A stretch of 40,189 nucleotides of DNA from assembly GCA_021779665.1 (NCBI GenBank), contig JAJYAG010000043.1:1-40189 (forward strand). Direction: 5' to 3'. This DNA is from Bacteroidota bacterium (GTDB lineage: Bacteria; Bacteroidota; Bacteroidia; Bacteroidales; JAAUTT01). The notes under the pieces are model-generated. The model ran no database searches. It had not been told where the DNA came from and saw only the letters and a program-made list of their open reading frames with translations. Numbering within the stretch: the first letter of the stretch is position 1; each line of letters opens with the position of its first letter. The translations under genes and the position numbers were made by a program. Shown piece after piece: positions 14,536 through 21,006 of this stretch.

Positions 14536-14646
14536 CTTGTAAATGTACAGCATGAAAATAAATACATGTAAATTTAATACATTTGGTTCATCTGATTACT
14601 AAAACAAGGCATCAGATTTTTGATTAACCTCAATAATCCCGTATTT

Positions 14647-16127
14647 ATGAAGAAATTAGTTTTTGTATTATCATTATTTTGCCTTTTTGCAAATCTTTCA
14701 GCTCAAAAGATAGAACGCAGATTTGTTAAGGATAGTCTGGATAATTATATAAATGACGCATTAAAGACCTGGAAAAACCCAGGAATTGCTGTTGCAATAG
14801 TAAAAGACGGAAAAGTTGTAGTCGCCAAAGGTTTTGGGGTTTGCGACCTTGAAAAGAAAGATGCTGTTAATGAGAACACAATTTTTATGATTGGTTCCAA
14901 CACCAAGGCTTTTACAGGTACTCTGATGGCCATGCTGGCCGATGAAAAGAAATGTTCCATGGATGATAAAGTTGTTAAATGGCTGCCTGGCTTTACCATG
15001 AAAGATCCATGGGTCGCCAAACAAATAAACCTTACTGACATTCTCTGCTGTACTGGGATTCCGATTTGAAAAATGAAGAAGTGATACAGAAATTTGGTCA
15101 ACTCACCCCAACGTACGACTTCAGGACCAAATGGGGCTATACCAATGCCGGATTCGCAATTGCCGCCGAATGTATGAAAAAAATCACCGGAGAAACCTGG
15201 GAGTCAAATCTGCAAAAAAGAATTCTCAATCCGCTGCAAATGAACAGAACCATTCCTCTCTCGGCCGATTTGCCAAAACAAAGCAATATTGCAACTCCTT
15301 ATACACTTGTTTTCGATACGATAAAAAAACTTCCCTTTCCTGTGATTGACAATCTGGCCGCGGCGGCTTCCATGGGTTCTTCAGTCCAGGATATGTCGAA
15401 CTGGCTTATTTGTCTGCTCGACAGCGGAAAATTCAGAAATAAAACAGTAATCCCCTACCCTGCCATAAAAACTACTCAAACGCCAAAATCAATCATTGGA
15501 AATGCCAGGCGTATATTCAATACAAGTAATTTTCTTCTCTACGGCCTTGGCTGGGAGCTTCAGGATTATGACGGGAAACAGATTGTGCATCACAATGGGG
15601 GTGTAAATGGCTTTGTTACATCGGTAACTTTGCTTCCATCCGAAAAACTTGGAATTGTAGTTCTCACAAACACCGATCAGAATTACTTTTATGAAGCGCT
15701 TCGCTGGGAAATTCTGGATGCCTGCCTCGGTTTGTCGTTCCGCAATTACAGCGCTTTTTATAATGGATACTATAAACGAGCTCTCAGCAGGGATATTTCA
15801 GAGTATAAAACCTGGAAAGATTCTGTGGCAAACAAACCCGCAAATGTGGATCTGAAAAAATACACCGGAAGGTATTCGCATCCTGTGTATGGTTGTTTAA
15901 ATATAAGTGAAACTGAGGGTAAGCTAAGGGTTAGTTTTGAGCACCATTCTAAAAAAACGGCAACACTGGAATATATGAGCCCAACCCGGTTTCTGTGCAG
16001 CTACAGCGATATCACTTATGGAATTAAGCCCTGGGATTTTAAAATTGAAGATAAAAAAGTTAATGCGCTAACCCTGAGAGTTGCAGACTTTCTTGAATAT
16101 ACAACATACGATTTTGTGAAGCAGTAG
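14647..16127 (+). pseudogene. Beta-lactamase-family serine hydrolase, broken by an internal out-of-frame deletion
   Basis: The first frame (14647-15069) starts with a signal peptide (MKKLVFVLSLFCLFANLSAQ) and carries the catalytic SxxK motif as SNTK (about residue 84). It stops soon after LTDILCCTGIPI. The second frame resumes as YWDSDLKNEEV from 15051 and runs to 16127, carrying the YxN motif (YTNAGF) and the HxG-like motif (HHNGGVNGF). Intact homologs read roughly ILCHRTG, then about a dozen residues, then a YW- or FW-containing segment, so about 12-13 codons plus a frame change have been lost near 15048-15050. Every other motif is preserved, so the lesion is recent or is a sequencing error. 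No slippery sequence supports programmed frameshifting. Homologs are class C-type beta-lactamases, esterases or D-peptidases of the periplasm. Confidence 0.8.
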
Positions 16128-17132: not shown

Positions 17133-18254
17133 TTACAAAATAATCTCCTTGAAATTTTTGCGGGTAATGTGTTTGAGTTCGCTATCGGGATATGCTTCTG
17201 AAAACGACTTAGGGAACCGGACTTTATCATTGTTCCACTTGAACTCGTAAGCATGAAGTTTGCCCTCGTATTCTTCCACAAAATCAATCTCCTGCTGTGT
17301 AAGTGTTCGCCAAAACCACTTATTTGTGTATAACTCACGGTAATGATTGAATTTTATCCGCTCGGTAATAATAAAGTTTTCCCACAGGGCTCCAACGTCC
17401 TGACGTAAATTAACTGGATTGAAATTTTTAATGATTGCATTGCGAATGCCATTATCCCAAAAATAGATTTTTTTGGCTTTTTTCAGCTCATTGCGCATGT
17501 TCCGGTTAAGGCTTGGAAGGGTGAAGATAACGAATGACTTCTCAAGCAAATCTATATATTTCTCAACTGTTTCCTTGTCTGCCCCAACGAGCTGTCCAAG
17601 TTCATTATACGAAACCTCATTACCCATCTGAAAGGCCAGCGCCTGAAGCATTTTATCCACCAGAACAGGTTTCCTTATTTGCTCAAGAGCCAGTAAATCT
17701 TTGTAAAGATAACTGTTTGTTATAAGTTGTATCAACTTCTGTTCTTCACCAGGATTATTAACAACATCAGGATAGTAACCATAAACCAAACGATGTTCTA
17801 AAAGGCGGGTTTCCTCAATTTCGGAAGTATGGTTTACCATTTCTCCAAAGGATAATGGATAAAGGTTATACTCGAATTTTCGTCCGGTTAGGGGTTCGTT
17901 CAGGTGATTGGCAATATCCAGGGAAGATGATCCTGTAACGATCACTTGTATATCTTTCAGGTTATCGATGATTAGTTTTAAGGTAAGACCGATGTTGCTT
18001 ATTTTCTGGGCTTCGTCAATTACCAGATATTTATTGTTTCCAATCAGGGCTTTCAAACGTGTGGAGGTTGCATTGGCAAGTAAATCGTTTGTATCGGCTT
18101 CGTCTCCGTTTATCCATAACGTTCTTTCTCCAACCAAATCAATAAGACGATTCACAAGAGTTGTTTTACCAACCTGCCGTGGCCCGGTGATGATGACAGC
18201 TTTTCCACGGAAAAAGTGCTTTGCAATAACATTTTCTAAAATTCTGTGGATCAT
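17133..18254 (-). CDS. AAA-family ATPase with DUF4143 nuclease-like C-terminus
   Basis: This 373-residue protein belongs to the widespread AAA_14/DUF4143 ATPases of Bacteroidota and archaea, whose cellular role is unsettled. Walker A is GPRQVGKT (24-31), Walker B is KYLVIDEAQ (75-82) and a sensor-like TGSSS lies at 107-111. A winged-helix segment follows at about 195-240. The C-terminal part has a PD-(D/E)xK-like signature, with Asp324 in QEIDFV and Glu337/Lys339 in HAYEFKW, so a nuclease fold is probable. The gene sits between larE and parC, converging on larE. Its upstream region holds a predicted promoter overlapped by an interleaved palindrome (18289-18362). Such genes are often scattered and transferred between genomes. 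Confidence 0.85.
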   Translation of the reverse strand: MIHRILENVIAKHFFRGKAVIITGPRQVGKTTLVNRLIDLVGERTLWINGDEADTNDLLANATSTRLKALIGNNKYLVIDEAQKISNIGLTLKLIIDNLKDIQVIVTGSSSLDIANHLNEPLTGRKFEYNLYPLSFGEMVNHTSEIEETRLLEHRLVYGYYPDVVNNPGEEQKLIQLITNSYLYKDLLALEQIRKPVLVDKMLQALAFQMGNEVSYNELGQLVGADKETVEKYIDLLEKSFVIFTLPSLNRNMRNELKKAKKIYFWDNGIRNAIIKNFNPVNLRQDVGALWENFIITERIKFNHYRELYTNKWFWRTLTQQEIDFVEEYEGKLHAYEFKWNNDKVRFPKSFSEAYPDSELKHITRKNFKEIIL

Positions 18255-18275: not shown

Positions 18276-18308
18276 CAAAATTATTATATTTTTCGATCGT
18301 AACCGAAA
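18276..18308 (-). promoter_or_regulatory. Predicted promoter of the DUF4143 ATPase, partly inside the palindrome
   Basis: On the minus strand, TTTC (18308-18305) is followed after 21 bases by TAATTTTG (18283-18276), a perfect TAnnTTTG box. Transcription would start about 15 bases before the ATG at 18254. The -33 element falls within the first arm of the interleaved repeats, so a protein bound there would block it. Confidence 0.42.
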
Positions 18309-18362
18309 AAATAGGTCGAATTTTTCGGTTACGATCGAAAAATTCGACCTATTTTTTCGGTT
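18289..18362. repeat. Interleaved perfect inverted repeats (a-b-a'-b' order)
   Basis: Arm a (18289-18310) and arm a' (18321-18342) are perfect 22-base reverse complements separated by 10 bases. Block b (18311-18320, ATAGGTCGAA) is the reverse complement of b' (18343-18352, TTCGACCTAT). A second frame of pairing joins 18301-18327 with 18336-18362, a perfect 27-base-pair stem with an 8-base loop. The two hairpins share bases and exclude each other. Each a arm also begins TTTTTCG and ends CGAAAAA, and a partial third copy (TTTTTCGGTT) closes the element at 18353-18362. It fills nearly all of the gap between the parC stop (18367) and the ATPase gene. Confidence 0.95.
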
Positions 18363-18366
18363 TAGG

Positions 18367-21006
18367 CTATAAATTCAAACTCATTTGAGAAGCGCTATCG
18401 TCTTCATCGGGATCGAAATCCGGACCTTCATCTGTAGGTTCAGGTTCTTCAGGCTCCGGCAGTTGAGGTGGTTCGAGCGGTTCAATTTCGGTTATTTTAC
18501 CAACTTCGTAAGTGGTTAATCGCTTGCCTTTGGCCTTGCAACCCTTAATAGCTATAAATTCATCGGCAACTATGATGTCTTTTGGTCGGGTTTTGTGCGG
18601 ACCGCTGTATTTAATTTCGAATCTTGGACGAGGTTCGCCCGAAATCAGCACCAGTCTTGATCCTGCCTCTTCAGCTGTGAAGTTGGTGAGTTTATCAGTC
18701 GCCTCGAAACTGAAACGTTTCAGATAATAGAATTTCTGCTCTCCGTCAAAGTATACAGCCGTGTATATCTTTCCCGAATTATATTTCTCAACAAACAGGA
18801 GATCGTCCTCGAAATGGTTCGAGAGTTCGAAGGTACTTAACCGGTATTGGCCGCCTTTTGTTACTACAAGCAATTTATCACCATTACGGAACTCGCCCAG
18901 ATAATTGCCTTTTCCGTCGATGTTCAAACGGCCAACGCTTTCGTCGAACCAGATTTTTGTTCCTCCAAGAGTTGAACTCCCCTTTTCCTTTAAAAGAATT
19001 TTATGGATAGCATATCTGGTAAGAATGTTCCCCATTGCATCGCGACCTTTGATGGCGAGATCGCCAAAATCTACGTCCATATCGAGGTTTTTCAGTCTTG
19101 GACGCGGACGCAGGATAATCCTTACAATTTCGGCCTCGCCGTTAGGATTGGCCGAGAAATATAACAGACGCGAATCAGGAGAACCCTTCGTAAGTGTATA
19201 TTCTTTATCGCGGGTAATCCCAGTAATGGCACAGCGCTTCATCATAATGGGACCATTTTTGCCATCGCGGTAAATCACATTATAAATGGTGCGGTTGTCG
19301 TTTTTCTTGAAAACATTTACATACTGCAGCTCTTTGCCAAGGAAAGCCTTTTCGGATACTTTGTTGATGATGTAAGTCCCGTCTTTACGAATGGCAATCA
19401 CATCGTCAATATCGGAGCAGTCGCAGATGTATTCGTCTTTTTTCAATCCTGTACCGGCAAATCCTTCTTCCCAGTTCACGTAAAGTTTTTCGTTTGCAAC
19501 CACTACCATGGTAGCCTCAATATTGTCGAAACTACGGATTTCGGTTTTACGGTCGCGGCCTTTGCCATATTTTCTGCGGATATCCTCAAAATACTTAATG
19601 GTGTAGGGAACGATATTCGCGAGGTTATGACGCACTTTTACAAGTTCGTCTTCAATGCCTTTGATAAGTTCATCGGCCTTTTTGATGTCGAACCGGGAGA
19701 TTTTTCTTACAGGCTTTTCGGTAAGCTTCAGAACATCATCACGTGTAATCTCGCGGCGGAAAAGCTTTCGGAATGGATCAAAACCTCTTTCAACTGCATC
19801 GATCACCTTCTCCCAGGTTTCAAGATCCTTTTCCAGTTCGCGGTAAATCTTTTCTTCGAAGAAGATTTTCTCAAGTGAAGCCATGTGCCAGTCTTCCTCC
19901 AGCTCGTTGATACGGATTTCGAGTTCTTTCTTAAGCAGATTAAGTGTGTTATCAGTCGAAATTTTCAGAATTTCGCTGACACCAAGAAACCTTGGCTTAT
20001 CGTTCTCAATAACGCACGCATTGGGCGAAACAGGGATTTCGCAATCGGTAAAAGCAAAAAGCGCATCGATTGTCTTATCAGGATCGATACCCGGAGCCAG
20101 ATGGACCAATATCTCCACATTGGCAGCAGTGTTGTCGTCGACCTTTCTGATTTTAATTTTGCCCTTTTCATTGGCTTTGAGGATGCTTTCGATCAACGAA
20201 GATGTGGTACGACCAAAAGGCACTTCGTTGATTACGAGTGTTTTCTTATCCAGCTTACTGATTTTGGCGCGAACTTTAACTGATCCGCCCCTTAACCCAT
20301 CGTTATACCTGGCAACATCGATAAGTCCTCCGGTTGGAAAATCGGGGTATAACTCAAAAGGCTGGTTTTTCAGATATAATATAGACGCTTCAATAAGCTC
20401 GTTGAAGTTATGCGGAAGTATTTTCGAAGCAAGACCAACAGCAATACCTTCCACACCCTGGGTGAGCAATAAAGGGAATTTAACCGGAAGAGTAACAGGC
20501 TCCTGATTACGTCCATCGTAAGATGGTTTCCATACCGTGGTTTTAGGATTGAAAATTACCTCGAGTGCAAATTTGGAAAGACGAGACTCGATGTAACGAG
20601 GTGCAGCAGCACTGTCGCCGGTAAGTATATTTCCCCAGTTACCCTGGCAATCAACTACCAGATCTTTCTGGCCTAATTGAACAAGGGCATCCCCAATGGA
20701 TGCATCACCATGCGGGTGGAACTGCATGGTATGCCCAATGATGTTTGCCACCTTGTTGTAGCGACCATCGTCCATACGGCGCATGGAGTGGAGAATACGA
20801 CGCTGAACGGGTTTCAGCCCGTCGTTGATATGCGGAACTGCACGTTCCAGGATTACATACGATGCATAATCCAGGAACCAGTCCTGATAAAGGCCTGTTA
20901 AAGGAATAATGTTGTGGATATCTTCGTGATGCTCATCAGGAACAATTTCTTTGGGATCCAGATGCTCATCATCTTCAGAAGGTATCTGTGTTGTTTCGTC
21001 GGACAT
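18367..21006 (-). CDS. parC: DNA topoisomerase IV subunit A
   Basis: This is the DNA-cutting subunit of the ATP-dependent type IIA enzyme that decatenates daughter chromosomes. The 879-residue protein has the catalytic Tyr138 in AAPRYIESRL, the quinolone-region motif HPHGDASIGDALVQL (97-111), a coiled-coil gate and a degenerate C-terminal beta-pinwheel. An acidic tail (EPEEPEPTDEGPDFDPDEDD) ends it. At the position equivalent to Ser83 of E. coli GyrA the residue is Ala102. The gene begins 24 bases after the parE stop, so both are in one operon. Assignment to ParC rather than GyrA follows from pairing with a ParE-like partner and from the Bacteroidota-type sequence. The interleaved palindrome begins 4 bases after the stop. 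Confidence 0.92.
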   Translation of the reverse strand: MSDETTQIPSEDDEHLDPKEIVPDEHHEDIHNIIPLTGLYQDWFLDYASYVILERAVPHINDGLKPVQRRILHSMRRMDDGRYNKVANIIGHTMQFHPHGDASIGDALVQLGQKDLVVDCQGNWGNILTGDSAAAPRYIESRLSKFALEVIFNPKTTVWKPSYDGRNQEPVTLPVKFPLLLTQGVEGIAVGLASKILPHNFNELIEASILYLKNQPFELYPDFPTGGLIDVARYNDGLRGGSVKVRAKISKLDKKTLVINEVPFGRTTSSLIESILKANEKGKIKIRKVDDNTAANVEILVHLAPGIDPDKTIDALFAFTDCEIPVSPNACVIENDKPRFLGVSEILKISTDNTLNLLKKELEIRINELEEDWHMASLEKIFFEEKIYRELEKDLETWEKVIDAVERGFDPFRKLFRREITRDDVLKLTEKPVRKISRFDIKKADELIKGIEDELVKVRHNLANIVPYTIKYFEDIRRKYGKGRDRKTEIRSFDNIEATMVVVANEKLYVNWEEGFAGTGLKKDEYICDCSDIDDVIAIRKDGTYIINKVSEKAFLGKELQYVNVFKKNDNRTIYNVIYRDGKNGPIMMKRCAITGITRDKEYTLTKGSPDSRLLYFSANPNGEAEIVRIILRPRPRLKNLDMDVDFGDLAIKGRDAMGNILTRYAIHKILLKEKGSSTLGGTKIWFDESVGRLNIDGKGNYLGEFRNGDKLLVVTKGGQYRLSTFELSNHFEDDLLFVEKYNSGKIYTAVYFDGEQKFYYLKRFSFEATDKLTNFTAEEAGSRLVLISGEPRPRFEIKYSGPHKTRPKDIIVADEFIAIKGCKAKGKRLTTYEVGKITEIEPLEPPQLPEPEEPEPTDEGPDFDPDEDDSASQMSLNL

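What the first reader, a model, noticed from the sequence alone, without database searches (positions are those of the whole stretch)
18289..18362. Interleaved perfect inverted repeats that form mutually exclusive hairpins
Arms a (18289-18310) and a' (18321-18342) are perfect 22-base complements, while 18301-18327 and 18336-18362 are perfect 27-base complements. The order a-b-a'-b' means only one stem can form at a time, in DNA or RNA. A perfect match at this length is very unlikely by chance and suggests selection or recent mobility. The element sits between the parC stop and a DUF4143 ATPase gene and covers the predicted -33 box of that ATPase. It could be an operator, an RNA switch that ends or allows transcription from parC into the ATPase gene, or a small mobile repeat processed by the nuclease-like ATPase.
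Basis: partly seen in the sequence, partly recalled or inferred. Interest (0 to 1): 0.75.

Follow-up and report, generated by a model that had tools for sequence, protein, structure and literature searches.

The report
Self-recognition operator of an ATPase-nuclease
The overlapping palindromes are a string of binding sites in front of a gene for a suspected antiviral ATPase-nuclease, and comparison across many bacteria indicates that the protein itself reads these sites through one amino acid, which gives a handle on a common protein family of unknown mechanism.

Summary
The repeats are real: perfect 23-bp and 27-bp arms that cross. They are one instance of a promoter array carried by genes of the AAA_14/DUF4143 ATPase-nuclease family (PADLOC candidate PDC-S01), not a parC element. 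In 89 upstreams of such genes, quasi-palindromes recur at exactly 32 bp (53/89 above a cut-off passed by 3/445 shuffles and 0/176 control upstreams; ten other spacings 0-4/89). Dyad centres alternate every 16 bp, so crossing hairpins follow from the layout. A promoter -7 box sits in phase with the array. Half-site letters differ between homologues and covary with protein residue 228, at the start of the recognition helix of the ATPase's own winged helix (z 21.9; next column 8.9). A rule fixed on the first set (Lys/Arg/His-G, Asn/Val/Ile-T, Glu/Asp/Gln-C) predicted 44 of 48 bases in held-out loci (shuffled mean 20, maximum 33). The ATPase therefore very probably binds, and likely represses, its own promoter. 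An RNA switch is not supported. Second lead: in 23/105 loci direct repeats bracket the array-gene unit (9/267 control genes), as if it were mobile. Binding, repression and mobility are untested at the bench.

The parts
17133..18254 (-). AAA_14/DUF4143 ATPase-nuclease gene (373 aa), PADLOC candidate defence family PDC-S01
   Evidence: Pfam DUF4143 8.6e-40 and AAA_14 8.2e-31; PADLOC PDC-S01 1.5e-167
17511..17669 (-). codons 196-248: winged helix-turn-helix (helices 196-208, 216-223, 227-239; strand 243-248)
   Evidence: AlphaFold2 model, mean pLDDT 90.9
17571..17573 (-). codon 228 (Glu), first turn of the recognition helix; residue that covaries with half-site base k6
17238..17291 (-). codons 322-339: PD-(D/E)XK-like nuclease motif (E322, D324, E337, K339), each conserved in 165-168 of 169 homologues
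   Evidence: motif assignment from recall plus the published description of PDC-S01 (passage)
18276..18283 (-). -7-like promoter box TAATTTTG of the ATPase gene, 16 bp from the centre of O2
   Evidence: sequence; the modal distance in homologues
18311..18320 (-). spacer between O1 and O2; its centre (18315.5) is the second kind of dyad
18343..18352 (-). outer spacer, reverse complement of the O1-O2 spacer; with O1 it builds the 27-bp stem
   Evidence: sequence
18353..18362 (-). half-site of a third operator O0, one 32-bp period upstream of O1; its other half would run into the parC stop
   Evidence: sequence; inferred from the 32-bp period
18367..21006 (-). parC, upstream neighbour; no sign that the array belongs to it
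   Evidence: parC downstream regions of 29 relatives and matrix scan of the same loci

Best explanation
The interleaved repeats are the operator of the ATPase gene at 17133-18254. The array has quasi-palindromic sites O1 and O2, plus a third half-site, one every 32 bp (about three helical turns). Dyad centres alternate every 16 bp between site centres and mid-points, and this alone makes hairpins that cross. The winged helix of the ATPase (residues 196-248) binds the half-sites; the side chain of residue 228 reads base k6 (Glu with C in the window). By the spacing, the k6 positions of the four half-sites lie 11, 21 and 11 bp apart, so all on one face of the DNA. Binding would cover the -33 region and spacer of the ATPase promoter, so the protein most likely represses its own gene. 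Shown here by computation: the array, its phase with the -7 box, its tie to DUF4143 genes, and the residue-base code. Inferred: contact, dimeric or higher binding, repression, and that some trigger lifts it.
For: Exact 32-bp period: 53/89 v 3/445 shuffles and 0/176 control upstreams, ten other lags 0-4/89. Covariation of residue 228 with k6: top column in the first set of 74 (z 15.4, next 7.4), first of 372 columns in a non-redundant held-out set of 49 (z 13.6, next 4.9), z 21.9 v 8.9 in 114 non-redundant rows. Blind prediction 44/48 among placed held-out loci, 36/38 after removing rows over 80% identical to the first set or to each other. At least 34 changes of base on the tree; in independent pairs on supported branches residue and base went the same way in 4-8 pairs and the other way in 0-1. 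Residues 227-239 form the recognition helix in a confident model. -7 box near 106/135 placed arrays v 5/135 shuffled regions, 98 of the 106 in one phase modulo 32 bp. Sites of this sequence occur only at the gene's own promoter in the window genome; a GCG-type site searched in 5 further genomes was found in 3, each time at the coordinates of the gene's own promoter, the other 2 genes carrying other letters. No recurrent neighbour gene.
Against: No binding or expression data. 12 of 89 first-set upstreams score under 10, 16 of 90 miss the masked cut-off, 19 of 80 held-out loci miss it. Over all 80 held-out loci, placed or not, 55 calls were right and 10 wrong. A few held-out rows are identical or 90% identical to first-set rows, hence the stricter 36/38. 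Of 10 more distant or same-genus DUF4143 genes scored, 9 (47-346 bits) show no array by this matrix (start codon uncertain in at least L058 and L233), so it holds for one subfamily. First-set links of residues 226 (k5) and 227 (k7) did not return as top columns in the held-out set (ranks 13 and 21). Supported independent pairs are few: sign tests median p 0.06, 0.03 and 0.02, with 2-6 pairs that do not differ. Paralogues of one genome do not differ more than matched between-genome pairs (p 0.22). The window's spacer departs from the common AT-rich spacer.
Confidence: 0.85

Rival explanations
1. The array is (also) an end of a mobile unit made of array plus ATPase gene; the nuclease uses the sites for moving, and repression is secondary or shared. 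Not exclusive with the best explanation.
For: Direct repeats bracket the unit in 23/105 loci v 9/267 control ORFs, Fisher p 9e-8; 23/102 v 0/199 mismatched flank pairs. The downstream copy starts within 6 bp of the stop codon in 9 of the 23, in none of the 9 control cases. Some copies are a second array (L072, L085, L198, L202, L214, L216); in L078 the copy lies at the end of a neighbouring reading frame. Array without gene at the same locus in G003. Patchy presence: 93 of 198 genomes at E 1e-60. COG1373, which I recall as this family, stands in a published table of transferred genes (PMC10782964, passage).
Against: No bracket found at the window. 82 of 105 loci have none. A matrix scan finds a downstream array in only 4 of 166 loci. 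Repeat lengths run from 21 to 327 bp, unlike a transposase. Some brackets (L064, L179, L181, L182, L194) may be dispersed intergenic repeats; L181, L182 and L194 also appear among the control cases.
Confidence: 0.35
2. RNA switch or terminator between parC and the ATPase gene that works by alternative hairpins.
For: Read-through RNA folds at -48.7 kcal/mol, z -9.6; the 27-bp stem starts 4 bp after the parC stop; the simple scan lists a terminator-like hairpin here, though on the plus strand.
Against: Among 30 parC loci a matrix hit is found only in the window and, weakly, in G003; the array goes with DUF4143 genes. In 82 of 106 arrays with a -7 box the box lies downstream of the array (in 24 it overlaps O2). 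The letters covary with a protein residue. Median longest perfect arm in 135 arrays is 9 nt.
Confidence: 0.06
3. Operator read by another regulator, not by the ATPase.
For: Covariation alone cannot show contact.
Against: The gene is mostly solitary, the most frequent neighbour family in 6 of 80 loci; the covarying residue is at the start of the recognition helix of the ATPase's own winged helix.
Confidence: 0.03
4. Iterons of a replication initiator: AAA+ plus winged-helix protein binding repeats beside its own gene.
For: Repeats at about three turns; remote fold likeness to Cdc6/Orc1, Z about 12.
Against: Chromosomal setting beside parC; nuclease-like residues kept. No replicon search was run.
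Confidence: 0.02

Closest known systems
PDC-S01 (PADLOC candidate single-gene phage defence; ATPase plus PD-(D/E)XK)
   Same: The window protein matches the PADLOC model at 1.5e-167; same domains as named in PMC12988326 (passages).
   Different: No operator, recognition code or mobile-unit border is mentioned in the passages read, and the searches listed no paper on one.
SSO1545/PABY2304 archaeal ATPases and STAND/NLR-like ATPases (2fna, 2qen, CED-4)
   Same: AAA core plus winged helix; best fold matches Z 16.0 and about 14.
   Different: Here the winged helix is inferred to read DNA at the gene's own promoter and is followed by a nuclease-like domain that the fold matches barely cover.
IniR, mycobacterial SSO1545-like regulatory ATPase (PMC5760070, passages)
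   Same: AAA+ ATPase likened to SSO1545; reported to bind a promoter.
   Different: Its DNA-binding domain is a separate C-terminal one and it induces another operon.
Transcription factors with covarying binding sites (MerR family, PMC5045206, abstract)
   Same: Same kind of residue-base correlation between DNA-binding domain and site.
   Different: The protein here is an ATPase-nuclease and the site stands before its own single gene.

Membership tests
PDC-S01 | match to the PADLOC model | tested here: met
   E 1.5e-167, residues 1-372
PDC-S01 | ATPase fused to a PD-(D/E)XK-type domain, catalytic residues kept | tested here: met
   G24, G29, K30, D80, E81 in 168-169 of 169; E322, D324, E337, K339 in 165-168 of 169. 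By motif only: the fold matches mostly span residues 1-293
PDC-S01 | sits in defence loci | tested here: inconclusive
   no recurrent neighbour in 80 loci; window neighbours are parC and a PP-loop gene; no defence-island scan was run
PDC-S01 | protects against phage | not testable with these tools
   PMC12988326 (passage) says validation is pending for most such candidates
autoregulatory operator | sites overlap the gene's promoter | tested here: met
   phase with the TAnnTTTG box, 106 of 135
autoregulatory operator | sites specific for the gene's own product | tested here: met
   residue 228 x base k6 code with blind test; computational only
autoregulatory operator | product changes transcription of the gene | not testable with these tools
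   needs an experiment
alternative-hairpin RNA switch | element lies in the controlled transcript | tested here: inconclusive
   outside the ATPase gene's own predicted transcript, since the -7 box lies downstream; parC read-through not testable
STAND/SSO1545-like ATPase | AAA core with C-terminal winged helix of this fold | tested here: met
   2fna Z 16.0, 251 residues aligned, rmsd 3.4; Foldseek TM 0.49/0.51; model pLDDT 90.9
mobile element with target duplication | direct repeats flank the unit | tested here: inconclusive
   23/105 homologous loci v 9/267 controls; none at the window

The most novel reading that the evidence does not exclude
PDC-S01 genes of this subfamily are minimal selfish or immune mobile elements of one gene: the unit runs from the array to about the stop codon, inserts with duplication of some 20-330 bp of target, and the array is at once operator, self-tag and one end of the unit. 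An NLR-like ATPase-nuclease is held at its own array through a one-residue recognition code that has changed many times, so that lineages recognise their own copy.
Probability: 0.3. Interest if true: 0.88.

Novelty: new variant of a known kind. Interest (0 to 1): 0.72.

Why it matters
PDC-S01 is reported as the fourth most common defence annotation across prokaryotes, and validation of most such candidates is pending (PMC12988326, passages). Its DNA target is not described in what I could search. Here the target is read out from genome comparison down to one amino acid and one base, with a rule that predicted unseen cases. That makes binding, autoregulation and a possible tie between operator and mobility directly testable, and lets annotators predict each copy's site. 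It also shows how a striking pair of crossing hairpins can arise simply from binding sites with a dyad every half period.

Tried and rejected
Rfam: low-scoring hairpin models only, 24 matches, none at its gathering score. Sequence copies elsewhere in the genome: none convincing, so a dispersed repeat family of this sequence is rejected; the link to other DUF4143 genes appeared only when layout and not letters was compared. A first palindrome count with a fixed threshold was blunt: 33/89 upstreams v shuffle mean 7.8; pairs 4/89 v 0.05. Taking the best of lags 31-33 instead of 32 alone gives 35/89 v 2/445 and 0/176. parC-linked role: downstream regions of parC in relatives show other hairpins or none. 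PDB by sequence: no relative, best E 0.19. NCBIfam: only weak matches. The search for AAA_14 or 'inverted repeat' returned 10,175 papers and was of no use. Orthogonality of paralogues in one genome: 15 of 16 pairs differ, but not more than matched between-genome pairs, p 0.22. Distant DUF4143 genes: 13 loci tried; L229 and L231 gave no gene, L234 had 47 bp upstream, 9 of the other 10 show no array. Arrays away from DUF4143 genes: none in the 313-kb genome sample beyond the window's own. The wrong blind calls L163, L164 and L197 look like one-base slips of the placement when read by eye after the fact; they stay counted as wrong, as does L217. Left out: L126 (broken frame) from the protein alignments; L088 (short upstream); the 60 loci L089-L148 with short flanks from the bracket tests. 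Samples are the best matches, not all: 90 loci from the ranked list, and the best 80 of 550 relatives. The z for k9 is meaningless (invariant column).

Full report
What was checked. The window holds two perfect, crossing inverted repeats: 18288-18310/18321-18343 (23 nt) and 18301-18327/18336-18362 (27 nt). They lie between parC (18367-21006, minus) and an AAA_14/DUF4143 gene (17133-18254, minus). Read on the minus strand the element is: half-site, spacer of 10, O1 (18342-18321), spacer of 10, O2 (18310-18289), then a -7-like box TAATTTTG (18283-18276) and the start codon. The 22-mer is unique in the 6.9-Mb genome even with 3 mismatches, and a 313-kb sample has three other crossing pairs, all with one arm of only 10 nt.

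The element belongs to the ATPase gene. The parC loci of the window and 29 relatives were read; a later matrix scan of these 30 loci finds an array only in the window and, weakly, in G003, the relative with the most similar ParC. In G003 the DUF4143 gene is missing there; the array scores 18.6 against a maximum of 13.9 in 300 shuffles. Upstream of DUF4143 genes 43-61% identical to the window's, nearly all from other families of the order, similar pairs of quasi-palindromes stand just before the start codon with other letters. A score for two dyads plus their mutual identity exceeds the 99th percentile of shuffles at 32 bp in 53 of 89 upstreams (the window's included), against 3 of 445 shuffles and 0 of 176 upstreams of other reading frames of the window genome; at 28-31, 33-36, 40 and 45 bp it does so in 0-4 of 89. 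A matrix trained on clear cases scores over 10 in 77 of 89 (self-trained, so not a test). With its variable columns masked it places 61 of 80 held-out loci above the shuffle 99th percentile. The held-out loci are the best 80 of 550 found; their record titles name Bacteroidota, Spirochaetes, Calditrichaeota, KSB1, Neomarinimicrobiota and other groups. Many are metagenome bins, so single odd placements may be binning errors.

Why the hairpins cross. In 135 placed arrays both the site dyads and the dyads at the mid-points between sites (16 bp away) pair above the 0.30 background, and the two inner half-sites agree best. Crossing is therefore built into an array with a dyad every 16 bp. The window copy is unusually perfect: its longest arm, 27, is third of 135, after two of 28; the median is 9.

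Promoter. TAnnTTTG, the Bacteroidota -7 consensus (recalled), is found near 106 of 135 placed arrays against 5 of 135 shuffled regions. It lies 13-18 bp after the O2 centre in 57 cases and one 32-bp period away from that in 41 more. In 82 of 106 it lies after O2, so the array is upstream of the transcript; in 24 it overlaps O2.

Who reads it. The half-site is TTT-k8-k7-k6-k5-ATTA. A scan of protein columns against k6 put residue 228 first (z 15.4, next 7.4; 74 rows). In the first set Lys/Arg/His went with G in 20 of 20, Asn with T in 8 of 8, Val/Ile with T in 5 of 5, Glu/Asp/Gln with C in 23 of 25. This rule was then tested on the held-out loci: of 61 placed, 44 correct, 4 wrong, 5 with no clear base, 8 with a residue outside the rule; shuffled residues gave mean 20.3, maximum 33 of 48 in 10,000 trials. 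Over all 80, placed or not, 55 were correct and 10 wrong. A few held-out rows are 90-100% identical to first-set rows; after removing rows over 80% identical to the first set and to each other, 36 of 38 were correct and residue 228 was again first, of 372 columns, z 13.6 against 4.9. With inner half-sites only, z is 21.9 against 8.9 in 114 non-redundant rows; 51 of 53 first-set and 42 of 45 held-out calls agree. On a FastTree tree without the winged-helix columns k6 changed at least 34 times; on supported branches the residue class moved with the base in 4-8 independent pairs, against it in 0-1, and did not move in 2-6. Links of residue 226 with k5 and 227 with k7 were seen in the first set but not as top columns in the held-out set. 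The pairing is chemically plausible (basic side chain with G, acidic with C, aliphatic with T; recalled).

Structure. An AlphaFold2 model (pLDDT 90.9) shows helices 216-223 and 227-239 and a strand 243-248, a winged helix whose recognition helix starts at 227. Best fold matches are the archaeal ATPases 2fna and 2qen (Z 16.0), then CED-4 and plant NLR cores (about 14). G24, G29, K30, D80 and E81 are kept in 168-169 of 169 homologues, E322, D324, E337 and K339 in 165-168. The protein matches PADLOC PDC-S01 at 1.5e-167. PMC12988326 (passages) calls PDC-S01 the fourth most common defence across all prokaryotes and says validation of most such candidates is pending. In PMC4406477 (one passage) a Thermus gene with AAA 14 and DUF4143 is listed with the value 6.6 in the section on expression changes with plasmid DNA.

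Mechanism. Best reading: the ATPase binds its own promoter array through its winged helix and represses itself. Shown by computation: layout, promoter phase, tie to the gene, residue-base code. Inferred: contact, oligomeric binding on one DNA face (k6 spacings 11, 21, 11 bp), repression and its release.

A further lead. In some loci a second copy of the array, or of flanking sequence, lies on the far side of the gene. Comparing 450 bp on each side, 23 of 105 DUF4143 loci have a direct repeat against 9 of 267 control reading frames; in 9 of the 23 the downstream copy starts within 6 bp of the stop codon, in none of the 9 controls. Examples: L178 (31 bp, identical), L215 (21 bp, identical), L086 (59 bp; by my reading the end of the upstream gene), L078 (68 bp, from the end of the neighbouring reading frame), L210 (327 bp, 78%), and arrays on both sides in L072, L085, L198, L202, L214 and L216. 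A strict matrix scan finds a downstream array in only 4 of 166 loci. The window has no bracket, and some cases may be dispersed repeats. With the gene-less array in G003 this suggests that array plus gene can move as a unit; it is a lead, not a result.

Literature. Searches for DUF4143 (1 paper), DUF4143 with operator (0), COG1373 (7), PDC-S01 (3), SSO1545 (2) and combined terms listed no description of this operator or code; most subscription papers and preprints are not in the library, so prior description elsewhere is possible.

Noticed in passing
L072, L078, L085, L086, L157, L177, L178, L198, L202, L210, L214, L215, L216, L225 (flanks of the DUF4143 gene): Direct repeats bracket the array-gene unit, either a second array or other flanking sequence of 21-327 bp; suggests a one-gene mobile unit.
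   Followed up: partly
L011 (G003), about 80-140 bp after the parC stop: A decayed array without a DUF4143 gene at the position where the window carries array plus gene (matrix score 18.6, maximum of 300 shuffles 13.9).
   Followed up: partly
L058, L232, L235, L237, L239 (upstream of distant DUF4143 genes): Other palindromes or tandem repeats, by eye, with a different layout; other subfamilies may have their own arrays.
   Followed up: no
window 14620-16127: What looks by eye like one serine beta-lactamase-type hydrolase is split over two overlapping reading frames (14620-15069 and 15066-16127), perhaps a frameshift or an assembly error (no family search run).
   Followed up: no
L051 12107-12139 and 19122-19156: A near-identical short palindrome (AAACCTTTCAGGTTT type) occurs twice in one 20-kb stretch of the genome; probably a dispersed intergenic repeat.
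   Followed up: no
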